From an uncultured Methanobrevibacter sp. (lineage in GTDB: Archaea; Methanobacteriota; Methanobacteria; Methanobacteriales; Methanobacteriaceae): a stretch of DNA of 64,000 nt. The first letter of the stretch is position 1. Every line of letters starts with the position of its first letter. Under the pieces are notes generated by a model, which made no database searches, had not been told where the DNA came from, and saw only the letters and a program-made list of their open reading frames with translations. Below are positions 10,868 to 21,664 of this stretch, in pieces. A program made the translations under genes and the position numbers. Location: contig OMVY01000010.1 in assembly GCA_900314635.1 (NCBI GenBank), forward strand, positions 1 through 64,000. Reading direction: 5' to 3'.

Positions 10868-11305
10868 TTAGAAATAATTAGGGTCCTTTTGAACTTTAAG
10901 GGTTTCAAAGCCTTCCAATACCAATCCCGCACCATCCTTGGCTCTTCCTTCCATGGATTTAGAACCTACATAGCTGTAAATGCAGCCGGAACCACTAGAA
11001 GCCAGCATCAGACCTGCAACCATTGGCTTGGTTCCTCCAGTAAAGTTTATGTGGACTATTTCCCCTTCCAGTCTGGCCATCAAATCATTGGATTTATCAA
11101 AAGCTTCGCTAAGACTTTCAGGATCATCTATTTTTACAAGAGAGTATTCTAAATCAAAACTAACATTTTCCAGAATCTCTTCTACGGTTTTAAGGGTTTC
11201 CTTGGAGTGGATAAAATAAACAAATTTTGGCTTGATCTGCTCAATAGCCACTTCAAGAGGTCTTGGAGTACCTCCAACAGTTAATATTAGTGTTTCATCA
11301 TCCAT
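10868..11305 (-). CDS. Stand-alone CARF-domain protein
   Basis: 145 residues that appear to be one Rossmann-like CARF domain, the cyclic-oligoadenylate sensor of type III CRISPR systems. The first strand and loop read ILTVGGTPRPLEVAI (residues 7-21) and the second ligand loop is INFTGGTKPMVAGL (86-99), the TGGTKPM form typical of the Card1/Can2 (DUF1887) branch. No nuclease or other effector domain follows, and the stop is followed by AT-rich DNA, so the gene is not obviously a cut-off piece. A CARF-only protein could be a ring nuclease that degrades cyclic oligoadenylate, or a remnant. GAGGAAGATAAG precedes the ATG. No cas gene is nearby. Confidence 0.75.
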   Translation of the reverse strand: MDDETLILTVGGTPRPLEVAIEQIKPKFVYFIHSKETLKTVEEILENVSFDLEYSLVKIDDPESLSEAFDKSNDLMARLEGEIVHINFTGGTKPMVAGLMLASSGSGCIYSYVGSKSMEGRAKDGAGLVLEGFETLKVQKDPNYF

Positions 11306-11590: not shown

Positions 11591-12904
11591 TTATGAAGGA
11601 AATACCTTGTAATACTTCAAGAAATACTTCATCATAGTATATGATTTGCCAATGGTTCCGCTGGCTATTGTCCCATGAGGAGTCTTGACCTCGCAGGTTA
11701 CAGAAGTAATTCCATTAATGCAGCAATGATCCTCAAGTGCGCCAGGATACTCCAATGCTGCTTTAGAATAGATTAATTTCGCAACACCCGCCTTTTTGGA
11801 AATATAAGTGGCCAGTTGTGCACTGGAAGCCATAGGAGCATAGGTTCCCATTGCAACATTCTTTCCAGGAGTGCCGCCAGGCCTTGTACAATGGAAATCT
11901 CCTAATGCAACTGCATTTTTAGATTTTGCAAATTTGATAATCCTGTTTGGAATGGTTCCTTTTTGATTTGCAATACTATTCAAGTTCTTGCCATTGTAAT
12001 ATCGGGTATTTTTTGCTGTCATGCTAGGTGCGACAAATGGGAAGACATAAATTTTTCCTTTGATATTTGTCTTTTTAGCCAATTTATTTATTAACTTAAT
12101 TGAAGCTGCTTGAGAAGACAGTTCATTACCATGAATACCTGAAACTACAACCACAGTTTTTCCATCACCATCTCCAAATTCAATATATGGGGTTCCCTTC
12201 TTGGCTGCTTTTATTATTGCAGTGGTGAGTGAGGATTTTACAAGTTTCTTATATAAAACTGCATTGTTTTTTATATTTCCCTTGCTTCCCCATTTGAAAA
12301 TTCTTATCTTTAAATTAACTTTTAATTTGCCTGTATTCTTTGCCTTTTCATAATAGCTGGAACCTGCATAAGTGGCATTATAGGAATAATTCTTTTTTGA
12401 AGAAATTTTAACTTTGACAGAAGCCCATCCATTTGAGCCAGTTTTAGCATAATAATTCTTGCCATTGAATCTGAACTTAATCTTTTTACCTGACAATGCT
12501 TTTCCCTGATAGTTTACCAGTTTTGCCTTCAAGGTCAGAGTCTTTCTAGCATACTTGTATGTATAACTGCTTGCAGTAAGTTTTGTAGCTTTTTTATTAA
12601 CTGCAACAGTTGAAGAAGCATTAGTTGAACTGCTTGAATTATCTGTCGCTAATGTGGAATCTGAACTGCTGGCTGAATCAATAGAACCAGATTCTGAATC
12701 TGCAATTGCAGGGCTTTCATCAGCAGAACTTACATCATCCAAACTGGAAGCCGCATCTCCAATTAGAGATCCATCAGCAGCATCAACATCCCCTAAAATG
12801 GAAACAGCATCCGCGCTTGAATTATCCGCTGCACTAATGGATGAAATACTAATCAAGCATAGCAATAAACATAAGCAAAATAAAAATTTACCGAGTTTAA
12901 TAAT
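11591..12904 (-). CDS. Secreted protein: Ig-like domain plus AstE/AspA-type zinc peptidase fold
   Basis: A hydrophobic signal segment (LGKFLFCLCLLLCLIS) is followed by about 75 residues rich in Ser, Ala and Asp. Then comes an Ig-like/Big-type domain (KLTASSYTYKYARKTLTLKA to YYEKAK) and a C-terminal domain of about 190 residues resembling succinylglutamate desuccinylase/aspartoacylase. Zinc ligands visible are GIHGNE (His, Glu) and the His of GDFHC; a likely catalytic Glu is in VTCEVKTPHG. It probably hydrolyses an amide bond at the cell surface; pseudomurein is a guess. Start problem: the in-frame first codons after AGGAG are ATT at 12904/12901, while the only ATG (12909) is in another frame that stops soon. 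TTG at 12865 would delete most of the signal peptide. Either a rare start or a one-base frameshift is present. Confidence 0.75.
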   Translation of the reverse strand: MIKLGKFLFCLCLLLCLISISSISAADNSSADAVSILGDVDAADGSLIGDAASSLDDVSSADESPAIADSESGSIDSASSSDSTLATDNSSSSTNASSTVAVNKKATKLTASSYTYKYARKTLTLKAKLVNYQGKALSGKKIKFRFNGKNYYAKTGSNGWASVKVKISSKKNYSYNATYAGSSYYEKAKNTGKLKVNLKIRIFKWGSKGNIKNNAVLYKKLVKSSLTTAIIKAAKKGTPYIEFGDGDGKTVVVVSGIHGNELSSQAASIKLINKLAKKTNIKGKIYVFPFVAPSMTAKNTRYYNGKNLNSIANQKGTIPNRIIKFAKSKNAVALGDFHCTRPGGTPGKNVAMGTYAPMASSAQLATYISKKAGVAKLIYSKAALEYPGALEDHCCINGITSVTCEVKTPHGTIASGTIGKSYTMMKYFLKYYKVFPS

Positions 12905-13163
12905 AACATTCTCCTAATTAATTTTTTACCCGCCTACAATTCATAAATCTAAGAAGTTAGATTAAATATGAATTTTTTTAATCAGAATTTAATTTAAAAC
13001 TCAAAATTTAATTAAAATAAGCGAATAAGGTTATAAATAAAGTTTTCTTACTTTTACTATTTAAATGTATTATTAAAATGTTTAACAATTCCTGATTAAA
13101 TAGAAAAAATAACTTAAAATAAATGATTAAATTCCATATACTCCTTAATTTAGCCAGGGATTT

Positions 13164-13208
13164 ATGAAAAAATCTGAAATTGATTCTTTAAATGAATTTG
13201 TAAAATAA
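13164..13208 (+). other. Tiny ORF in front of the silent hsdS cassette
   Basis: ATG to TAA encoding 14 residues (MKKSEIDSLNEFVK). It ends nine bases before the inverted repeat of the silent cassette and overlaps the cassette frame. It shares no likeness with the start of the active hsdS. It may be the relic of a gene that the cassette was inserted beside. The 290 bases before it hold only AT-rich DNA with a TATA-like TTATAAATA near 13030. Confidence 0.2.
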
Positions 13209-13216
13209 AATTGTTT

Positions 13217-13250
13217 TCTGTCGGGATGAACCAGAGTTAAGATTTCCAGA
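13217..13250 (+). repeat. Inverted repeat, N-terminal site, silent copy
   Basis: 34 bases starting TCTGTCGGGATGAACC, with an inverted partner at 17293-17326 inside the active hsdS differing at one base (A versus C at position 17). The repeat encodes CRDEPELRFP. Similarity stops sharply upstream of it, as expected for a recombination junction. Confidence 0.9.
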
Positions 13251-13823
13251 ATTTAATGAAAAATGGGAAACTTTAAAATTAGGTGATTTTCTTGAATTTA
13301 TATCAACAAATTCTCTTTCAAGAGCTAAATTAAATTTAGATGATGGAAAAATTAAAAATATTCATTATGGGGATATACATACTAAATTTCCAACAATTGT
13401 AAATGTTGAAAATGAAGAAATTCCTTTTATAAATTTAGATGAAGACACTTCTAAATTTAAAAAAGAACAATTTTGTAAAGAGGGAGACCTTGTAATAGCC
13501 GATGCATCTGAAGATTATGCAGATATTGGGAAAGCAATAGAATTAGTAAATGTTAATATAGATTTAGTTGCAGGTTTGCATACTATCTTAGCAAGAGATA
13601 AATCAAATAAAACAGCTACGGGTTTTAAAGGCTATTTGTTTTTAACGGAGGATTTGAGGAAAAAAATTAAAATTAATGCTAATGGAATTTCTGTTTTAGG
13701 AATTAGTAAAAATAATATTGCTAATTTAGATGTAAAACTACCTTCTAAACAAGAACAAGAAAAAATTTCAAGTTTTCTTCATGCAATTGATAACAAAATT
13801 GAGTTATTGGAAAAGAAACTAGT

Positions 13824-13841
13824 TCTATACCAACAACTCGA
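13824..13841 (+). repeat. Inverted repeat, central site, cassette 1
   Basis: TCTATACCAACAACTCGA, a perfect 18-base inverted match to 14983-15000 in cassette 2. It falls in the conserved helix between TRD1 and TRD2, so inversion between the two copies would exchange TRD2 domains. Confidence 0.9.
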
Positions 13842-14409
13842 AAAAGATGTTAGAAAGAGTATTTTTAATTTTAATGATGAAAAAATCGGATTTAATAAAT
13901 TTTTATTGGGAGAAATTGCAGAAATTAAAAAAGGATTCACTCCATCAACACAAAATGAAGAATTTTGGAATGATGGCAAGTATTTATGGTTAAGTATTGC
14001 AGATATGAATAAAAAATATTTAACTGAAACAAGCAAGAAAATTACTGAAAAAGCTATAAAAAACAGAGCAATTATTCCAAAAAATACTCTTGTAATGAGT
14101 TTTAAACTAACAATTGGGAAATTAGCAATTTTAAAAGAAGATATGTTCACAAATGAGGCAATTGCAAGCTTTAATTGGAAAAATAAAAAAATATCTACAG
14201 AATATATGTATTTTTATTTGAAATCAATAAATATTAAAAAATATGGTTCACAAGCAGCAAAAGGAATAACATTGAATAATGAAACTTTAAATTCTATTCC
14301 CGTATATTTGCCTGATTTAAATAAACAAAAAGAAATAGTTGAAATATTATTATCCTTTAATAATAAAATTGAAATGCTTAAAACTCAATTAACTGCACTA
14401 AATAGATTT

Positions 14410-14472
14410 AAAAAAGGATTATTACAAAAAATGTTTGTTTAAATAAACATTTTTTGAAGTAGACCTTTTTTT
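14410..14472. repeat. Tail-to-tail inverted ends of two hsdS cassettes
   Basis: The last codons of cassette 1 (encoding GLLQKMFV) and of cassette 2 (GLLQKMFI) meet head-on with overlapping TAA stops, forming an imperfect inverted repeat centred near 14441. The same C-terminal sequence ends the active hsdS near 16122. Confidence 0.75.
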
Positions 14473-15000
14473 AATAATTTAAATTCTTTATTAAAATCTT
14501 TTAAAAGATTGATTTTATTTTCTAGACTATTTAATATTAAAACAATATTTTCTTGATTAAAATCCGAAGGGATAGGTAGTTCAACTTCTTTTAAAATAGA
14601 ATAATGTCTTTTATACCCTTCTGGAGAGATATTATAATTTTTTAATGCATAATACAGATATTTCATGTTTGTATTTTCTTTTCTTGATTGTAATAATTTA
14701 ATACCATCACCAGCTACAATAAATGGATAATTAATATATTGCAAATGAGTAGTATGATCTCCAAATAGTATTATAGGGAATATATTACAAAGTTTAGCAG
14801 CATTATCAAAATATCCTGCTTTATCTTTTCCTTGTGTTAAAACAGGAATTTTGCCTTTATCTTTTATTTCACTATTTTTTATTTGAAATCTTTTTGAGGA
14901 GATTACTTTAAAAATTTCATTAACTGTGAAAAATTTGCTATTTAATTCAATATCTTTAAAAAGAATTTTTCTCCATTCTGCCTCGAGTTGTTGGTATAGA
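14439..15000 (-). pseudogene. hsdS: Silent hsdS cassette 2 (second TRD only)
   Basis: Open frame on the minus strand encoding the second half of an HsdS: LYQQLEAEWRKILFKDIELN, then a TRD (ISSKRFQIKNSEIKDKGKIP, GDHTTHLQYINYPFIVAGDG) and the closing helix ending KKGLLQKMFI. It begins at the 18-base central inverted repeat, has no TRD1 and no start codon. The frame stays open to about 15066 without a recognisable domain there. It is a donor of TRD2 sequence for cassette 1 if the intervening segment inverts. The TRD differs from both other second TRDs. Confidence 0.82.
14983..15000 (-). repeat. Inverted repeat, central site, cassette 2
   Basis: Perfect reverse complement of the 18 bases at 13824-13841. 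Together they bound a 1.14 kb segment holding two TRD2 domains in opposite directions. Confidence 0.9.
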
Positions 15001-15067
15001 CATATTAAATAAAGATTAGTGCAGTACTGAAATAAATTATAAATTTTTATTATAAAGACAATTTATT

Positions 15068-16108
15068 ATGTATTATAATAAATTATTTCAAAGATTTTGT
15101 AAAGAGCGAAATATCAAAGAAAGCACTATGAAAGGATATCGCTCTACTTTAAAAAAGTATGAAGGATTTCATAAGAAAACTTTAGATGAACTAATGGAAG
15201 AAGCTATTGAAGATGAGGAAAAGGGAATTCCCCTTAAAGAAAGGAAAATAAAGAAGAGATTATTGGATTATCGAACTTACTTGCTTGATAGTGATATGTC
15301 TCCTAATACATCAAAGACATATTTCTCAAAACTAAAGACCTTTTATTTGCACTTTGAGATTGAACTACCTCATTTGCCTGATGCTAAATACAATAAAATT
15401 TATGAGACTAATTATTTGGATTTGCCAACTAAAGAACATATAACTCAAGCTATAGAAATTTCCACAATTGATTTAAAATCAGTGATTTTGTTCATGTCAA
15501 GTAGTGGAACTGCAAAAGCGGAAACCCTTTCGCTAACAGTTGAGCAATTTATCCAAGGAACTCAAGAATATCATAATGGCGGATCAATTGAGACAATCTT
15601 AGATACTCTAGAAAAACGAAAAAATGTAGTTCCTACTTTTTATTTAAAGCGTATCAAAACAGATAAATATTATTATACTTTCTGCTCTCCAGAAGCAAGC
15701 AGATATATTGTTAAATACTTGAAGACTAGGCAAAATCTGAAATTAGAAGATAAATTATTTGATTTCACTCCTTCACTTCTTTTAACTCGTTTTCAAGAAA
15801 TAAACGACTACTTTAATTGGGGTTTTAAAGGAAAGTATAGATTTTTTAGATCCCACACTCTGAGGAAATTTCATGCATCAAATATTGGTTTAAGTGCTGA
15901 GTATATTGATTCTCTTCAAGGAAGAAGCAAGAATGAAGTTCATGAGACTTATATTAAAACTAATCCAAAAAGATTAAAGGAAATTTATAAGTCTGCAATG
16001 AAGAATGTGATGATTTTTGAGAGTAAACATATAAAAGAAGTGGAAAAACAGGAGTTTAATATTATAATTAATGTATTTTTATCTGGAAAAGAGTATAATA
16101 TTATTTAA
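15068..16108 (+). CDS. Tyrosine recombinase/integrase of the hsd locus
   Basis: 346 residues. An N-terminal SAM-like core-binding domain (residues 1-100) is followed by the catalytic domain. Seen active-site residues: H263-x2-R266 (SHTLRKF), H292 and the nucleophile Y295 (VHETYIK). The first catalytic Arg position reads GTAKAETL, so Lys150 seems to stand where Arg is expected. It lies between silent and active hsdS genes, convergent with the active one, inside the segment that the 34-base repeats would invert. That position suggests it inverts hsdS DNA. No ribosome binding site precedes the ATG; a TATA-like TTATAAATTT about 28 bases upstream fits a leaderless mRNA. Confidence 0.88.
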   Translation: MYYNKLFQRFCKERNIKESTMKGYRSTLKKYEGFHKKTLDELMEEAIEDEEKGIPLKERKIKKRLLDYRTYLLDSDMSPNTSKTYFSKLKTFYLHFEIELPHLPDAKYNKIYETNYLDLPTKEHITQAIEISTIDLKSVILFMSSSGTAKAETLSLTVEQFIQGTQEYHNGGSIETILDTLEKRKNVVPTFYLKRIKTDKYYYTFCSPEASRYIVKYLKTRQNLKLEDKLFDFTPSLLLTRFQEINDYFNWGFKGKYRFFRSHTLRKFHASNIGLSAEYIDSLQGRSKNEVHETYIKTNPKRLKEIYKSAMKNVMIFESKHIKEVEKQEFNIIINVFLSGKEYNII

Positions 16109-16121
16109 CTAAAAAAGATGT

Positions 16122-17378
16122 TTAAATAAACATCTTTTGCAATAAACCTTTTTTAAAGTTAATAATCTCTTGAATTTTCATTTCCATTAAATGCTCTTTA
16201 TTATCGAATTTAAGTAAAAAATCTGCAATATATTTCTGCTTTTGAATATCATAAGGTATTGCTATAGGTGTTTTTCTCAAATCTTTCATCTTAATACTTT
16301 TAAAAGTACTTCCTGTAATATTATTATTAAAATAATGTTGAATTTTATTTGATTTCATCAAACAATATAAAAATTTTGGTTCCAACAAGTTTTTATTAGC
16401 CCTTAGTGAAAATACAGATTCATTTATATTCCAATTTAATGGATCTTCTTTAATTAGATAAACTTCGCCCACACGACCTATACTTGCAAAAATTAAATCA
16501 TCCTTCTTCAAATCAGACCGCTTATTAATCATATTTAATGCATCATCATCTATTTTATCACACTTTTCATCTAAAGTCAATTTTCCATTTTCAAAATTTT
16601 TAATGGTTACATAAAAATTAGTTCCCCCATCATTTAACTTAAAATTTTTTCTAGGGTTTAAACCTGTGGAAAATTTAGTTACAACATCTTCTAGAACTAA
16701 TTCTGTGTATTCAATTTTTAATTTATCAAATGTTTGGATATTAAAAATTTCGGAATAATAATAATCTTTTAAATATAAAATTTTTTCATGTTTCTTTTCC
16801 AATAACCCAATTTTTTTATCAATTGTTAATAAAAAATTCGCTATCTTTTTTTGTTCATTTATATTTGGATAATATAATTCCAAATTCTTTATAATTTTAG
16901 ATGAAAGATTTCCCTGACCTCCTTGCAAATATTTATGCACAATATTCTCTTTTTCTTTTAAAAAATAATTGTATTGGAATACATTATCCATTTCATTATC
17001 AATTTTTAAAACTGCTTGATTTATTGCGCCATCTAATTTTGAAATGGCCACTTCTCCACTTGTCGCTCCATAAAGAGCTAATAATAAATCTCCTTTTTTT
17101 ACTAATTTAGCAGAAGAATTATTAATAGCATCTTCATTTATATATTGTTCTGTTTCTTCAGAATTTATTTCACCAGATTTGATAAATGGAATATTCCCAA
17201 TATAAAAATTCTTATTTGATGTAGAAGGTGTTCCACCAGAATATGTTTTACTAATTTCACCAATTTTTTCTTTTTTCCATTTATCTTTAAACTCTGGAAA
17301 TCTTAACTCGGGTTCATCCCGACAGATATTTTCTTTTTCATTGGTTTTCTCAGAAGAAACAAGTTTTTGCTGTACCAT
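16122..17378 (-). CDS. hsdS: Type I restriction-modification specificity subunit (expressed copy)
   Basis: 418 residues that read one half each of a split DNA target. Order: leader MVQQKLVSSEKTNEKENI, repeat-encoded CRDEPELRFPEF, TRD1 (IGEISKTYSGGTPSTSNKNF to about 180), a conserved helix (ANFLLTIDKKIGLLEKKHEK), TRD2 (LEDVVTKFSTGLNPRKNF to about 390) and the C-terminal helix (INFKKGLLQKMFI). AGGTGG precedes the ATG. It starts eight bases after the hsdM stop, so it is the last gene of an hsdR-hsdM-hsdS operon. The promoter-proximal 18 residues are outside the inverted repeat, so they would stay fixed while the rest is exchanged. Confidence 0.95.
   Translation of the reverse strand: MVQQKLVSSEKTNEKENICRDEPELRFPEFKDKWKKEKIGEISKTYSGGTPSTSNKNFYIGNIPFIKSGEINSEETEQYINEDAINNSSAKLVKKGDLLLALYGATSGEVAISKLDGAINQAVLKIDNEMDNVFQYNYFLKEKENIVHKYLQGGQGNLSSKIIKNLELYYPNINEQKKIANFLLTIDKKIGLLEKKHEKILYLKDYYYSEIFNIQTFDKLKIEYTELVLEDVVTKFSTGLNPRKNFKLNDGGTNFYVTIKNFENGKLTLDEKCDKIDDDALNMINKRSDLKKDDLIFASIGRVGEVYLIKEDPLNWNINESVFSLRANKNLLEPKFLYCLMKSNKIQHYFNNNITGSTFKSIKMKDLRKTPIAIPYDIQKQKYIADFLLKFDNKEHLMEMKIQEIINFKKGLLQKMFI
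17293..17326 (-). repeat. Inverted repeat, N-terminal site, expressed copy
   Basis: Partner of 13217-13250: 33 of 34 bases match in inverted orientation. Inversion between them would flip about 4.1 kb, including the recombinase, and swap the full body of hsdS. Confidence 0.9.
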
Positions 17379-17386
17379 GAAACCAC

Positions 17387-18928
17387 CTAAAATATAGGGG
17401 CTCTTATGCCCAATTCTTCACAATATTTCTTGATTTCCTTATCAATATCTTCCATTTCAATAGCTATTTTTTCAAGCTCATCACAAACTTCATCAAGATC
17501 TATCGGCTCTTCTTCCTCAAAGGTATCAACATATCTTGGAATATTGAGATTGAAATCATTCTCTTTTATTTCTTCCAAAGTGGCTTTATGAGAATACTTT
17601 TCAATTTCTTCTCTGTTTTTGTAAGTGTTGACTATTTTTTCAATATCCTCTTCTCTTAACTTGTTTTGATTTTTAACCTTTTCAAAGCCTTTGGAAGCAT
17701 CAATGAATAAAACATCCTGATCTTCTTCTCTGCATTTCTTAAAGATTAAAATGCAGGTTGGAATGCTTGTACCATAGAAAATATTGGCTGGAAGACCAAT
17801 AACCGCATCAAGATAATTCTTTTCATCTACAAGATATTCTCTTATTGTTCCTTCTGCAGCTCCCCTGAAAAGAACTCCATGAGGCAATACGATTCCCATA
17901 GTTCCATTTTCATCCAAATGATGAATCATGTGTTGTACAAAAGCATAGTCCGCCTTTGATTTGGGAGCCAGCCTTCCATATGCACTGAATCTTTCATCAT
18001 CAAGGAATGAACTGTCAGAAGACCATTTAGCAGAGAACGGTGGATTGGCAACGATGGCTTCAAACTTCATATCCTTATGCTGAGGGTGTTCTAGAGTATC
18101 GCCTTGCTTAATATCAAAATCACTATATTTGACTCCATGGAGAATCATATTCATTCTAGCGAGGTTGTAGGTGGTTTGATTTAATTCCTGACCATAAAAA
18201 TCACCAACTTCACATTCACGAGCAACCCTTAAAAGCAAGGACCCAGAACCACAAGTAGGATCATAAACAGTTTTTAACCTAGTTTTTCCTAAAGTAACAA
18301 TTTTTGCTAAAATTTTAGAAACCTCTTGAGGAGTATAGAATTCCCCTGCTTTCTTACCTGCTTCTGAAGCAAATTGGCTTATTAAATATTCATAAGCATC
18401 TCCAAGAATATCAGCTTCCGCATCTTCAATCTTAAAGTCAATATCATTTAAAGTCAGAATCACTTTGGAAATTAAATTATTCTTTTCATTATTACTTGAG
18501 CCTAATTTGGAAGAGTTTAAATCCACATCCTCAAAAAGATTGCTGAAATCATCCTGGCTTTTAGTGTTCATTGAGGAATTACTGATATAATTTAATGACT
18601 TGATTAAATCATCAAGAATGAACTCACCGACCTCTGCTTTTTTTACAACAGTAGAAAACAGGTATTCTGGTTCAATGAAATAACCTAGATATCCTATGCT
18701 GTCTTCTTTTAAGTCAGGATTGTATTCATCCAATTTCCAAGCATCCTCAAATGTGATTCCATCTTCCTTTAATTCATTATCAATGTATAATTCTAATTTT
18801 TCTGACAGATAACGATAAAATATAAAACCTAAAATATAGTTCTTATATTCATTAGCATCCATATTCCCTCTTAAGAGATCTGCTATAGACCATAACTTAC
18901 TTTCCAAACTATTTTGATAATTAGACAT
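17387..18928 (-). CDS. hsdM: Type I restriction-modification methyltransferase subunit
   Basis: Adds a methyl group to N6 of adenine in the sequence chosen by HsdS. An N-terminal helical domain (residues 8-160) precedes the SAM-binding motif I DPTCGSGSLLL (224-234) and the catalytic motif NPPF (296-299). The reading frame has a TTG one codon earlier; the ATG at 18928 behind AGGTGGG is preferred. The stop is eight bases before hsdS and the gene starts about a dozen bases after hsdR, a tight operon. About 513 residues, normal for the family. Confidence 0.97.
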   Translation of the reverse strand: MSNYQNSLESKLWSIADLLRGNMDANEYKNYILGFIFYRYLSEKLELYIDNELKEDGITFEDAWKLDEYNPDLKEDSIGYLGYFIEPEYLFSTVVKKAEVGEFILDDLIKSLNYISNSSMNTKSQDDFSNLFEDVDLNSSKLGSSNNEKNNLISKVILTLNDIDFKIEDAEADILGDAYEYLISQFASEAGKKAGEFYTPQEVSKILAKIVTLGKTRLKTVYDPTCGSGSLLLRVARECEVGDFYGQELNQTTYNLARMNMILHGVKYSDFDIKQGDTLEHPQHKDMKFEAIVANPPFSAKWSSDSSFLDDERFSAYGRLAPKSKADYAFVQHMIHHLDENGTMGIVLPHGVLFRGAAEGTIREYLVDEKNYLDAVIGLPANIFYGTSIPTCILIFKKCREEDQDVLFIDASKGFEKVKNQNKLREEDIEKIVNTYKNREEIEKYSHKATLEEIKENDFNLNIPRYVDTFEEEEPIDLDEVCDELEKIAIEMEDIDKEIKKYCEELGIRAPIF

Positions 18929-18940
18929 CAACCCACCTTT

Positions 18941-21664
18941 TTAATAATTGAATTTTTCAAATAAATCAGTTATTCTGTTCTTTATTGTTTTCACTTTGTT
19001 TTTCCTTGCCTTATATCTTAATGTGTCCTTAAATGAAGCTTTTATTAAATCATCATCAAGTTTTCCAGAGAATTCATATTTTTCAAAGAATTTACGAGCC
19101 ATGGCCTCATCCAGGTTTTCCTCATCGATGATATTGCAGATTTCCGCTCTTCTTTCAGTTCTCATAAACTCTTCAAAAGCATCTCCAACAGTAGTCTGTT
19201 TAGTATCAATATTACCCAGTTTTTCATTAATAAATTTCTCAATAAGGTCAATCTTACTACGTAATTGCTGGGTTTCATTAACAAGTTTCAAGATTCTTTT
19301 CTTGTCATGTTCAAAACTAGTGCTACTGAAATCCAAGTCTTCCATCAGTTTGATAATGTAATCAACATTGATTTGATCATTTCTCAAAAGCTCAAGTTCA
19401 AAATCAATATCATCCAAAATGGAATCAGGACCCTCTCCCTCAGTAACTAAATCATCATATATTTTAAAGTAAACGCTTTTATAGTCATTGAATTCCTGTT
19501 CAGTCATGTCCAGGTTGTCAAATGTGAATTCCGTGAAAATATCTAACTTGTTCTTTATCCTTGACAATTCTCTGAAATTCAGAACAAAAGTCTCCTTATC
19601 CGTTTCACTTTGTAAATTCATTGCCTCTTCAACAGTTTCGACTAACTTATGTAGCTCTTTAACTGCTTCATTGAATTTATCTACAAAGAATTCGTAAGGA
19701 GGAATTATAATATCTTCACAATTATCTGTCATTGAGAATAAAGCAATTGCTCTGTCAGTATCCTCTTTAATGTCTCTGAAACATACAATATTTCCTTGCG
19801 ATTTTCTCATATTGATTACACGATTAGTCCTTGAAAACGCTTGCAGGAGAGTATGGTATTTTAAGTCCTTATCAACATACAGAGTATTTAGCATAGGACT
19901 ATCGAAACCGGTTAAAAACATGTCCACAACAAGCAACAAGTCAATTTCTCTGTTTTTCATTCTTTTGGATACATCAGCATGATATCCTTTAAAGTCATCA
20001 GTACTGAAATTAGTATCAAACATTTCATTATAGTCCTTAATATAGGAATCTAATAAATCCTGTGAAAGTTCCTTTTCAGAGGAATCCTCATTAACTTTAT
20101 AAGTGAAGATTGTAGCTATTTTTAAATCGTGCTTTGCTTCTTTGAAGAGTTTGTAGTATTTATGAATTACTCCACCTCTTGATACTGTAAACATTGCATT
20201 GAATTCACGATTCTTAGTCTTAGTGCTGTAACTGTTTATCACATAATCCACAATTGGTTTTAATCTTTTATCAGATTCTAAAAATTCCTTAGTGTCGATT
20301 CCAGTGACTTCCTTGTCAGGCTTGTTTTTGATTTTTGCTCCTCCAAAGTAATCAACTGAAAATCCTAAAACGTTTCCATCTGCAATTGCATCTTTAATGA
20401 CATATTCATGAAGCCTTTTTCCAAAAATGCTTTTGGTGGTTTTGAATCCATCAGAATTTACGGCAAAAATTGGAGTTCCTGTGAATCCAAAGGACAGGAC
20501 ATTTGTAAAGAAATCAACAATGGACTGGTGCATCTCACCAAATTGACTTCTATGGCATTCATCAAAAATAAGAATGATGTTTTTATCTTTAATGCTTTGA
20601 AGCTTTTTTTGATCTCCACGGGTTTTTACAGCCTTAGATAACTTTTGTATTGTGGTAGTCACCAATTTACCTTTTCCTTGGGTGGTTAAATTTTTTATCA
20701 AAGCTCCTGTGTGCTCTGTTACATTAACACAACCATCACAGAAACTGTTGAACTCCTTGTTTGTTTGAATGTCAAGATCTCTTCTGTCCACTACAAAAAT
20801 TACTTTATATATAGATTCCTCTTCTGCAAGCAGCTGGCTTACTTTGTATGATGTTAAGGTCTTTCCACTACCTGTTGTGTGCCATACATAGCCATTTTGC
20901 TTATTTTCCAAAGCCTGTTCTATAACCGCTTCGACAGCATATTTCTGATAAGCCCTTAAGATCATCAGTTTTTTAGAGGATTCATTTAAAACCATGTATT
21001 TGGAAATCATTTTTGCAAGATTGCATTTTTCAAAAAAGGTATCTGTAAAATCTTCCAATGAGTAAATATTGTTGTTTTCCTTGTCTTTCCAGTAGAATGT
21101 GAATTCAAATTTAAGCTCGTTTGGTCTTCCATTAGCAAAATATTTGGACTCCACACCATTGCTGATTACAAAAATCTGAATGAAATTAAATAAACCTTTA
21201 TAAGAGTGAAGTTTATACCTATTGATTTGATTAAATGCCTCTTTTATATTCATTCCTCTTCTCTTAAGTTCCACTTGAACAAGAGGCAATCCATTGATAA
21301 GCAAAGTTACATCATAACGATTCTTATGCAAGCCTTCCATTTTAACCTGGTTGGTAACTTGAAAAATATTCTTACACCAATCTTTCTCATTGATGAATTT
21401 GATGAAAAATGATTCTTCTTCCCTTTCAATGAAAAAATGGTCTCTTAATTTTTTAGCTTTGTCAAATATTGTTCCAGAATCCAAATATTGAAGAACCCTG
21501 TTAAATTCTTCATCAGTTAAATCACAACGATTCAACTTTTCAAGCTGCACTTTAAAATTAGCATTTAGCTCTTCTTCATTTTTAATATTGATTTTTTGAT
21601 AACCGTTTTCAGATAGCCTATCAATTAATTTGGCTTCTAAAACTGCTTCACTTTCCACTGACAT
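18941..21664 (-). CDS. hsdR: Type I restriction-modification endonuclease/translocase subunit
   Basis: 907 residues. The N-terminal nuclease domain has the PD-(D/E)xK pattern (Asp118 in RYDVTLLI, then QVELK at 130-134). The superfamily 2 helicase motor follows with Walker A TGSGKT (264-269), the DECH box (FDECHRSQ, about 350) and GFTGTP. A C-terminal helical region of about 250 residues binds the rest of the complex. AGGGG precedes the ATG. First gene of the hsd operon; promoter in the 200 AT-rich bases upstream. No frameshift or missing motif, so restriction is expected to be active. Confidence 0.96.
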   Translation of the reverse strand: MSVESEAVLEAKLIDRLSENGYQKINIKNEEELNANFKVQLEKLNRCDLTDEEFNRVLQYLDSGTIFDKAKKLRDHFFIEREEESFFIKFINEKDWCKNIFQVTNQVKMEGLHKNRYDVTLLINGLPLVQVELKRRGMNIKEAFNQINRYKLHSYKGLFNFIQIFVISNGVESKYFANGRPNELKFEFTFYWKDKENNNIYSLEDFTDTFFEKCNLAKMISKYMVLNESSKKLMILRAYQKYAVEAVIEQALENKQNGYVWHTTGSGKTLTSYKVSQLLAEEESIYKVIFVVDRRDLDIQTNKEFNSFCDGCVNVTEHTGALIKNLTTQGKGKLVTTTIQKLSKAVKTRGDQKKLQSIKDKNIILIFDECHRSQFGEMHQSIVDFFTNVLSFGFTGTPIFAVNSDGFKTTKSIFGKRLHEYVIKDAIADGNVLGFSVDYFGGAKIKNKPDKEVTGIDTKEFLESDKRLKPIVDYVINSYSTKTKNREFNAMFTVSRGGVIHKYYKLFKEAKHDLKIATIFTYKVNEDSSEKELSQDLLDSYIKDYNEMFDTNFSTDDFKGYHADVSKRMKNREIDLLLVVDMFLTGFDSPMLNTLYVDKDLKYHTLLQAFSRTNRVINMRKSQGNIVCFRDIKEDTDRAIALFSMTDNCEDIIIPPYEFFVDKFNEAVKELHKLVETVEEAMNLQSETDKETFVLNFRELSRIKNKLDIFTEFTFDNLDMTEQEFNDYKSVYFKIYDDLVTEGEGPDSILDDIDFELELLRNDQINVDYIIKLMEDLDFSSTSFEHDKKRILKLVNETQQLRSKIDLIEKFINEKLGNIDTKQTTVGDAFEEFMRTERRAEICNIIDEENLDEAMARKFFEKYEFSGKLDDDLIKASFKDTLRYKARKNKVKTIKNRITDLFEKFNY

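What the first reader, a model, noticed from the sequence alone, without database searches (positions are those of the whole stretch)
13204..21664. Invertible, multi-cassette type I restriction-modification locus in an archaeon
A complete hsdR-hsdM-hsdS operon is followed by a tyrosine recombinase and two start-less hsdS cassettes in tail-to-tail order, with two sets of inverted repeats. That gives two different TRD1 and three different TRD2 sequences. Combining them could give up to six specificities in one population, which would alter genome-wide methylation and phage defence. Phase-variable hsdS systems are known in bacteria (Mycoplasma, Streptococcus, Bacteroides); an archaeal one with this layout may be undescribed.
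Basis: partly seen in the sequence, partly recalled or inferred. Interest (0 to 1): 0.88.

Follow-up and report, generated by a model that had tools for sequence, protein, structure and literature searches.

The report
Shape-shifting restriction system in an archaeon
A methane-producing archaeon carries a DNA-cutting defence system whose target-recognition gene is flanked by silent spare parts, short inverted repeats and a recombinase, arranged so that DNA flips could give it six different targets, as in some bacteria.

Summary
Window 13204-21664 holds hsdR, hsdM, a complete hsdS, a divergent tyrosine recombinase, a silent one-TRD cassette and a silent start-less two-TRD cassette. There are three inverted-repeat pairs, not two: 34 bp with one mismatch, 18 bp, 17 bp. 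They give exactly six TRD1/TRD2 pairs within two inversions. Inversion itself was not seen (one assembly, no reads). Support for real exchange: a sister species has, next to an orthologous hsdM, a close homologue of the TRD1 silent here, with mosaic breakpoints at two of the repeats; silent cassettes lack stops and show purifying selection (weakest for the one-TRD cassette); recombinases go with cassette arrays in orthologous loci (10 of 12, against 0 of 8). Against: only 4 of 9 hsdS-recombinase loci show exact inverted repeats of 16 bp or more, and the recombinase's catalytic set is unusual. The units match pneumococcal Spn556II (hsdS with 2, 1 and 2 TRDs plus a tyrosine recombinase), in another order. 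Relatives of the recombinase also sit beside BREX pglX copies, repeat-flanked segments before adhesin-like genes, and rows of short ORFs in viral contigs. I found no archaeal hsdS switching in the papers searched. New variant of a known kind.

The parts
18941..21664 (-). hsdR, 907 aa, restriction subunit
   Evidence: TIGR00348 hsdR 498 bits (cut-off 284.6), EcoR124_C, HSDR_N
17387..18931 (-). hsdM, 514 aa, methylation subunit
   Evidence: TIGR00497 hsdM 461 bits (cut-off 242.8), N6_Mtase
16122..17378 (-). hsdS in the expressed position, 418 aa: TRD1a (about 16740-17291) and TRD2a (about 16125-16721)
   Evidence: two Methylase_S stretches; domain borders from a profile search
15068..16108 (+). 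divergent tyrosine recombinase, 346 aa
   Evidence: SAM-like domain; PHROG integrase E 4e-12; Foldseek best hits archaeal Xer/XerA, at low TM-scores; K200, H263xxR266 and Y295 invariant in 16 aligned sequences
14439..15000 (-). silent one-TRD cassette (TRD2c), no TRD1
   Evidence: Methylase_S E 5.5e-12 over 14439-14990
13204..14442 (+). silent start-less two-TRD cassette: TRD1b (about 13252-13869) and TRD2b (about 13879-14439)
   Evidence: two Methylase_S stretches; in-frame stop upstream and no start codon
13217..13250 (+). IR-A copy 1 (34 bp), N-terminal repeat of the silent cassette
17293..17326 (-). IR-A copy 2 (33 of 34 identical), N-terminal repeat of hsdS
13803..13819 (+). IR-C copy 1 (17 bp exact), spacer of the silent cassette
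16790..16806 (-). IR-C copy 2, spacer of hsdS
13824..13841 (+). IR-B copy 1 (18 bp exact), spacer of the silent cassette, 4 bp after IR-C
14983..15000 (-). IR-B copy 2, start of the one-TRD cassette
14436..14450 (.). TGTTTAAATAAACAT over the two convergent stops; the same 15 bases at 16119-16133 at the 3' end of hsdS (possible terminator or exchange point)
   Evidence: function not tested

Best explanation
[quoted passage not shown] Only the hsdS joined to hsdM is expressed (inferred from the missing starts of the others). The locus-encoded tyrosine recombinase (inferred) recombines short inverted repeats. IR-A flips the whole 4.1-kb segment and swaps the complete reading frame; IR-C swaps TRD2 between hsdS and the two-TRD cassette; IR-B swaps TRD2 between the two silent cassettes. 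The population can thus hold up to six HsdS proteins, each directing the enzyme to a different bipartite target, so methylation and restriction change together. Shown here: anatomy, repeats, reachable combinations, a relative whose hsdS is mosaic at the IR-A and IR-C positions, purifying selection on silent cassettes. Inferred: that this recombinase does it, that it happens within a culture, and the effect on targets and viruses.
For: Anatomy and repeats. Enumeration: 8 arrangements, exactly 6 TRD1/TRD2 pairs, all within 2 inversions; all three repeat pairs are needed (A+B gives 3, A+C 4, B+C 3). Sister species G031 (hsdM 85% aa) has next to hsdM a TRD1 84% aa-identical over 190 residues to the silent TRD1b, the closest of the 143 TRDs compared. 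Its hsdS follows the window's hsdS in the first 60 nt, the silent cassette in 18 of 18 30-nt steps across TRD1, and neither after the IR-C position. dN/dS 0.21 for silent TRD1b against that gene and 0.25-0.36 for silent TRD2b (three pairs), against 0.24-0.27 for TRD1a in the expressed position (two pairs); no stops in the silent frames, where 100 neutral simulations of TRD1b gave 6.8 on average and never none. TRDs homologous to window-silent ones are in the expressed position in L096 (84%) and L041 (52%). Of 38 orthologous hsdM loci, among the 20 with >=3 kb held downstream, 10 of 12 arrays (>=3 TRDs) and 0 of 8 others have a recombinase (one-sided Fisher p 3.6e-4). A similar set of units in another one-contig genome (L117), with a 578-bp exact inverted copy over TRD1, i.e. 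recent exchange inside that locus. Recombinase relatives sit beside other loci with inverted copies or repeats.
Against: No read-level evidence; one assembly, one form, and no further TRD copies on other contigs beyond C33 and C17. The three repeats share no clear common site, so one enzyme may not serve all. Of nine loci with this recombinase beside hsdS TRDs, only four (window, L041, L056, L117) show exact inverted repeats of 16 bp or more between TRD regions; L059 and L068 have 15 bp at most, L062 and L063 none of 14 or more and L057, cut by its contig end, none of 15 or more. In L117 the recombinase is split by a frameshift. PF00589 is not matched; the Arg I box reads A149-K150 and the usual His/Trp is Arg286 (canonical positions recalled). 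PDB sequence search: 0 hits; the structural model is modest (pLDDT 67, pTM 0.49) and its best Foldseek hit has TM-scores of 0.27/0.34. In the tree the hsdS label is not clustered beyond shuffles (69 of 500 as low), and the window's enzyme lies next to pglX-linked ones. Silent TRD2c has dN/dS 0.44-0.61, and all TRDs are under weaker constraint than hsdM (0.08 against L096). Two arrays with enough flank (L111, L113) have no recombinase found.
Confidence: 0.8

Rival explanations
1. A slow TRD reservoir: the cassettes are exchanged only on an evolutionary scale by homologous recombination or gene conversion between hsdS copies, and the recombinase is inactive or does something else. There is no phase variation.
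For: The 578-bp identical TRD1 in L117 looks like gene conversion or duplication rather than inversion, and its recombinase is frameshifted. No within-population inversion was seen. Five of nine hsdS-recombinase loci lack exact inverted repeats of 16 bp or more. The hsdM orthologue group also has tandem arrays (L100, L107, L115).
Against: Repeats of 16-18 bp are short for homologous recombination (recalled). Recombinases of two kinds go with arrays in 10 of 12 cases against 0 of 8. The window's recombinase frame is intact and relatives sit beside other loci with inverted copies or repeats.
Confidence: 0.13
2. Division of labour: the locus recombinase acts on only one repeat pair (as PsrA of pneumococcus was found necessary only for the IR1 inversion), and the other exchanges use another enzyme, for instance one of the other recombinases in this genome.
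For: The three repeats have different sequences. In pneumococcus psrA deletion abolished only the IR1 inversion (PMC4948785, passages). The genome encodes at least two further relatives of this recombinase (G000:C14, G000:C27).
Against: IR-B and IR-C lie 4 bp apart in the silent cassette and form a loose inverted repeat (24 of 35 positions self-complementary, reached by 68 of 63965 windows of that length), which would suit one enzyme. No data on activity.
Confidence: 0.35
3. The recombinase is a passing mobile element (integrase) that landed between hsdS copies by chance.
For: Relatives occur on viral contigs, and 19 of 41 recombinase loci examined had none of the three target types.
Against: The place beside hsdS TRDs recurs in window, L041, L056, L057, L059, L062, L063, L068 and L117, in two separate parts of the recombinase tree. 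I did not search for attachment sites or element borders.
Confidence: 0.05

Closest known systems
Spn556II / SpnD39III (cod locus) of Streptococcus pneumoniae with recombinase PsrA
   Same: Type I locus with three hsdS units carrying 2, 1 and 2 TRDs and a tyrosine recombinase; short inverted repeats, one of only 15 bp; several alleles by inversion (PMC4948785, passages; PMC7394358, passages; PMC4190663, title and abstract start in a listing).
   Different: Archaeal host; order differs (psrA lies between hsdSB and hsdSC, here the recombinase lies between hsdS and the one-TRD cassette); recombinase not compared with PsrA; exact repeats of 16-18 bp, whereas the SpnD39III ones are given as 15, 85 and 33 bp; inversion not yet observed here.
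Mycoplasma pulmonis hsd loci with HvsR
   Same: hsdS inversions by a tyrosine recombinase changing specificity (passage in PMC4948785).
   Different: Bacterial; not compared by sequence here.
Inverting type I loci of the REBASE survey (PMC7394358)
   Same: Duplicated variable hsdS with inverted repeats before the 5' TRD and between TRDs (passages).
   Different: The survey demanded exact repeats of >=20 bp, so this locus falls below its threshold. Main text has 0 occurrences of 'archaea'; its supplements could not be opened, so archaeal entries there are not excluded.
Halovirus phiCh1 invertible locus
   Same: Archaeal-world precedent for phase variation by inversion (titles in the reference list of PMC8371274).
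   Different: Viral structural or adhesion proteins, not restriction-modification.

Membership tests
[quoted passage not shown]
[quoted passage not shown]
   start-less + cassette with 2 TRDs and a one-TRD cassette; no window TRD matches another at over 35% identity across 100 residues
[quoted passage not shown]
   IR-A, IR-B, IR-C, beyond shuffles
[quoted passage not shown]
   longest exact repeat 18 bp. This is a search threshold, not a biological definition: the authors say shorter ones are missed, and a 15-bp repeat works in pneumococcus
[quoted passage not shown]
   no reads, one genome per species
Tyrosine recombinases | Sequence homology to the superfamily | tested here: met
   PHROG integrase E 4e-12 over residues 7-309; Phage_int_SAM_5 over its cut-off; XerA_Arch E 1.4e-8, under its cut-off; PF00589 not matched
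Tyrosine recombinases | Fold of the superfamily | tested here: inconclusive
   modest model (pLDDT 67); Foldseek best hits are tyrosine recombinases (4a8e E 2.6e-4, then XerA, integron integrase) but with TM-scores of 0.34 or less and one hit only at E <= 0.001
Tyrosine recombinases | Catalytic set R...K...HxxR...H/W...Y | tested here: inconclusive
   K200, H263, R266 and Y295 invariant, but A149/K150 at the Arg I box and R286 for H/W; canonical positions recalled
Archaeal XerA (NCBIfam NF040815) | Score over the curated cut-off of 220 bits | tested here: not met
   34.7 bits; five Xer-type recombinases beside sister arrays do pass, 236-272 bits
PsrA-type hsdS recombinases | Sequence homology to PsrA | not tested
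   no PsrA sequence was compared

The most novel reading that the evidence does not exclude
One recombinase lineage of Methanobacteriaceae, also found on viral contigs, works as a general cassette shuffler for both sides of the virus-host conflict. In the hosts it re-aims type I restriction (hsdS) and BREX (pglX) and flips promoter-like segments of adhesin-like genes; in viruses it shuffles rows of short surface- or tail-like cassettes. Archaea would then have recombinase-driven phase variation of epigenetic defence, evolved at least twice (this lineage and a Xer-type lineage) around one orthologous hsdM family.
Probability: 0.45. Interest if true: 0.8.

Novelty: new variant of a known kind. 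Interest (0 to 1): 0.62.

Why it matters
Recombinase-driven switching of restriction specificity is known from bacteria; the passages of surveys and reviews that I saw report none in archaea. If it operates in gut methanogens, clonal methanogen populations are epigenetically mixed. That bears on virus resistance, on DNA transfer barriers (and so on genetic tools for rumen and gut methanogens), and on how methylation affects their gene expression. Related Methanobrevibacter and Methanosphaera genomes carry similar loci, so long reads of cultured strains could test it.

Tried and rejected
Searches (stop codons in a range I gave; accession not held; term too short) failed; one search was repeated with a shorter range, 78 and 87 were dropped.

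IR-A as an exact pattern in viral contigs: 0 hits. Recombinase profile against PDB sequences: 0 hits. Same-species strains: none reachable (one genome per species; the named-collection search warns that records of the window's own or near genomes may be left out).

Contig ends as evidence of inversion heterogeneity: in several draft genomes the contig stops near hsdS start or in the TRD spacer (for example L112 and L116 end in a spacer sequence that is an inverted repeat in L113 and L099). But L096 ends inside TRD2, and ordinary repeats also break assemblies, so I do not count this as support.

A common core motif for IR-A, IR-B and IR-C: none seen by eye; the loose palindrome formed by IR-C and IR-B is only suggestive and was picked after the fact. 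The label 'tail' for L051, L052 and L076 in the tree was set by eye from the sequences, not from a family hit.

Rows left out: of the 44 best-scoring recombinase places (a capped list) I examined 41 (window plus 40 fetched) and skipped three (G053:C273:125795, G087:C125, G115:C9). For the association count I used the 20 of 38 hsdM loci with >=3 kb held downstream; that limit was chosen after seeing the data, loci share descent, TRD counts include single TRDs upstream of hsdM and broken frames, and a 36-bit recombinase fragment far upstream in L110 was not counted. Of the 18 loci with less flank, 4 have a recombinase (L056, L057, L063, L105).
Full report
Observation. The window lies in a draft genome of 36 contigs (2.29 Mb, 96.8% complete). 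Its family holds genomes whose contigs agree in length with named Methanobrevibacter and Methanosphaera records, so it is Methanobacteriaceae. On the minus strand run hsdR (18941-21664), hsdM (17387-18931) and hsdS (16122-17378). Then come a recombinase on the plus strand (15068-16108), a one-TRD hsdS cassette on the minus strand (14439-15000) and a two-TRD cassette on the plus strand (13204-14442); the last two meet tail to tail with overlapping stops. Families. The plus cassette has an in-frame stop just upstream and no start codon; the other has no TRD1. Five of 8 Methylase_S matches in the genome are here, two more lie together on contig C33, one is on C17.

Repeats. Exact inverted repeats in 13000-17500: IR-A 16+17 bp around one mismatch (13217-13250 / 17293-17326), IR-B 18 bp (13824-13841 / 14983-15000), IR-C 17 bp (13803-13819 / 16790-16806). 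In 200 dinucleotide shuffles none had four inverted repeats of 16 bp or more; 16 had at least one. Shuffles ignore that the repeats code conserved HsdS motifs, so I also looked at codons: 9 of 11 shared residues at IR-A, 5 of 5 at IR-C and 5 of 6 at IR-B use the same codon, with probabilities under local codon usage of 2e-4, 8e-3 and 3e-3. Enumerating inversions gives 8 arrangements and exactly six expressed pairs, each at most two inversions away; leaving out a repeat pair lowers this to 3 or 4.

Evidence of exchange. Among the 143 TRDs compared, the closest to the silent TRD1b is the TRD1 next to hsdM in genome G031 of the same genus: 84% aa identity, hsdM 85%. Along that hsdS, identity to the window's hsdS is 0.73-0.83 in the first 60 nt (silent copy 0.50-0.57). 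In the next 60 nt, over the IR-A position, the two are close (0.67/0.70 and 0.87/0.93). Then identity to the silent cassette is 0.70-1.00 and higher in all 18 steps across TRD1 (hsdS 0.47-0.70), and after the IR-C position both are at background (0.50-0.73). This is the chimera expected from recombination at IR-A and IR-C. Other TRDs also change position between species: the window's silent TRD2c matches a TRD2 in the expressed position of L041 (52%), its silent TRD2b a silent TRD2 of L041 (71%), its TRD1a a second-position TRD of L114 (72%). dN/dS is 0.21 for TRD1b against G031 and 0.25-0.36 for TRD2b, like TRD1a in the expressed position (0.24-0.27); for TRD2c it is 0.44-0.61, less clear; hsdM against L096 gives 0.08. 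The silent frames have no stops, while 100 neutral simulations of TRD1b had 6.8 on average.

Distribution. I took the 38 hsdM matches of >=66% identity spanning 400 residues or more, fetched their surroundings and annotated them. Seven have the window's type of recombinase: window, L041, L056, L057, L059, L063, L117. Seven have a Xer-type one: L098, L099, L100, L105 (fragment at a contig end), L109, L114, L115. The five of these scanned score 236-272 bits for XerA_Arch (cut-off 220), the window's 34.7, and BLASTP of the window's against that of L099 finds no similarity. Twelve of 38 have TRDs on the strand opposite to hsdM. Of the 20 with at least 3 kb held downstream, 10 of 12 with three or more TRDs have a recombinase and 0 of 8 with two or fewer (one-sided Fisher 3.6e-4; the limit was set afterwards and loci are related). 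L117 lies in a one-contig genome of 1,767,403 bp, a length I recall for Methanosphaera stadtmanae DSM 3091. It has units like the window's (2 TRDs, recombinase, 1 TRD, 2 inverted TRDs; recombinase in the other orientation), a 578-bp exact inverted repeat over TRD1 and a 28-bp one in the spacer, but a recombinase split by a frameshift. Not all loci fit well: of nine with this recombinase beside TRDs, five (L057, L059, L062, L063, L068; some cut by contig ends or without an inverted cassette in view) show no exact inverted repeat of 16 bp or more between TRD regions.

The recombinase. It matches SAM-like domains and PHROG integrase (E 4e-12) but not PF00589. A modest AlphaFold model (pLDDT 67) finds archaeal Xer 4a8e (E 2.6e-4), XerA, integron integrase, XerH and lambda Int, at TM-scores of at most 0.34. 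K200, H263xxR266 and Y295 are invariant in the 16 aligned sequences; the Arg I box reads A149-K150 and the third position is R286. In the family 111 of 138 genomes have some relative at E <= 0.001. With a profile at E <= 1e-40, 103 of the 151 genomes held for the phylum match, 99 in this family and 4 in another family of the order. A scan of named genome contigs for close relatives gave 18 loci, all Methanobrevibacter, Methanosphaera or Methanobacteriaceae. Other phyla were not searched with the profile.

What else it sits beside. Of 41 recombinase loci examined (40 fetched plus the window, out of the 44 best places), 8 have hsdS TRDs, 7 have pglX pieces and 7 an adhesin-like gene; 19 have none of these. 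In the one-contig genome G041 (1,853,160 bp, a length I recall for M. smithii PS) an 80%-identical recombinase stands next to a BREX locus with BrxC, PglZ, BrxL and five pglX segments in both orientations, with a 98-bp exact inverted repeat. In 7 of 7 adhesin-like loci a segment of about 250-425 bp between recombinase and gene is flanked by inverted repeats of 19-30 bp with 0-3 mismatches (no shuffle control). Two of these are in the window's own genome (C14, C27). Twenty viral-contig loci encode relatives. Of seven inspected, four (L138, L140, L141, L142) show rows of similar ORFs of about 110-150 aa facing an oppositely oriented copy or gene; only L140 has an inverted repeat of 16 bp or more (18 bp). 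In the tree of 42 rows, pglX-linked enzymes form one supported clade (97/88), adhesin-linked ones need one or two changes, and hsdS-linked ones fall in two parts and are no more clustered than shuffled labels (69 of 500 as low); the window's lies next to the pglX clade (87/91).

Comparison with the known. The set of units is that of the pneumococcal Spn556II locus: hsdSA with two TRDs, hsdSB with one, psrA, hsdSC with two; PsrA is needed only for the IR1 inversion, a 15-bp repeat (PMC4948785, passages). The REBASE survey required exact repeats of >=20 bp (PMC7394358, passages), so this locus falls below its threshold; its main text does not contain 'archaea', its supplements were not open to me. 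A survey of archaeal restriction-modification systems has no occurrence of 'inver' and cites recombining S subunits among studies largely or only of bacteria (PMC10609329, passages). A review of archaeal tyrosine recombinases has no 'hsdS' and no 'restriction-modification' (PMC8371274, passages). A read-based inversion survey saw none in its 6 archaeal datasets (PMC5903667, passages). A 2025 phase-variation review looks forward to extension to archaea (PMC11868660, passages). The rows shown by searches name no archaeal hsdS inversion; the library lacks most subscription papers. I recall, without a call, work on inversions in viruses of M. smithii.

Verdict. A real, well-built candidate for an inverting type I locus in an archaeon: a new variant of a known kind, with a little-studied recombinase lineage. 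What is missing is direct sight of the inversion.

Noticed in passing
G041:C1:1785200-1823000 (L042, L134, L135); also L039, L045: BREX locus whose pglX methyltransferase is present as several partial copies in both orientations beside a recombinase 80% identical to the window's: a candidate invertible BREX.
   Followed up: partly
G000:C14 (L066:10512-10961) and G000:C27 (L074:10466-10742); also L064, L065, L067, L070, L075: Segments of about 250-425 bp flanked by 19-30 bp inverted repeats (0-3 mismatches) between a recombinase and an adhesin-like gene, 7 of 7 loci: candidate archaeal invertible promoters (no shuffle control).
   Followed up: partly
L138, L140, L141, L142 (IMG/VR contigs): Viral contigs with the same recombinase family beside rows of similar ORFs of about 110-150 aa facing an opposite copy or gene, shufflon-like; an 18-bp inverted repeat only in L140.
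   Followed up: partly
L098, L099, L100, L109, L114, L115: Second kind of archaeal hsdS array with a Xer-type recombinase and a different spacer repeat (GATGCAACAGATTTTCGCACAGAAATTAAGA in L099, also in L113); L100 and L115 are tandem, not inverted.
   Followed up: partly
L057:10431-10985, L059:5966-6565, L117:8258-8812, L063:4602-5156, L098:9499-10038, L100:8721-9266 and others: A separate one-TRD HsdS-like protein of about 185-200 aa encoded just upstream of hsdM in several orthologous loci, but not in the window; role unknown.
   Followed up: no
L117:10418-10995 / 13863-14440 and 11602-12638: 578-bp exact inverted repeat over TRD1 and a frameshifted recombinase in a one-contig Methanosphaera-type genome.
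   Followed up: partly
window 11591-12865: ORF with an AstE_AspA_cat match over its cut-off and sub-threshold Ig-like matches, next to the locus.
   Followed up: no
window 10868-11305: Small ORF with a sub-threshold match to the Card1 CARF domain (21.8 bits, cut-off 24.6).
   Followed up: no
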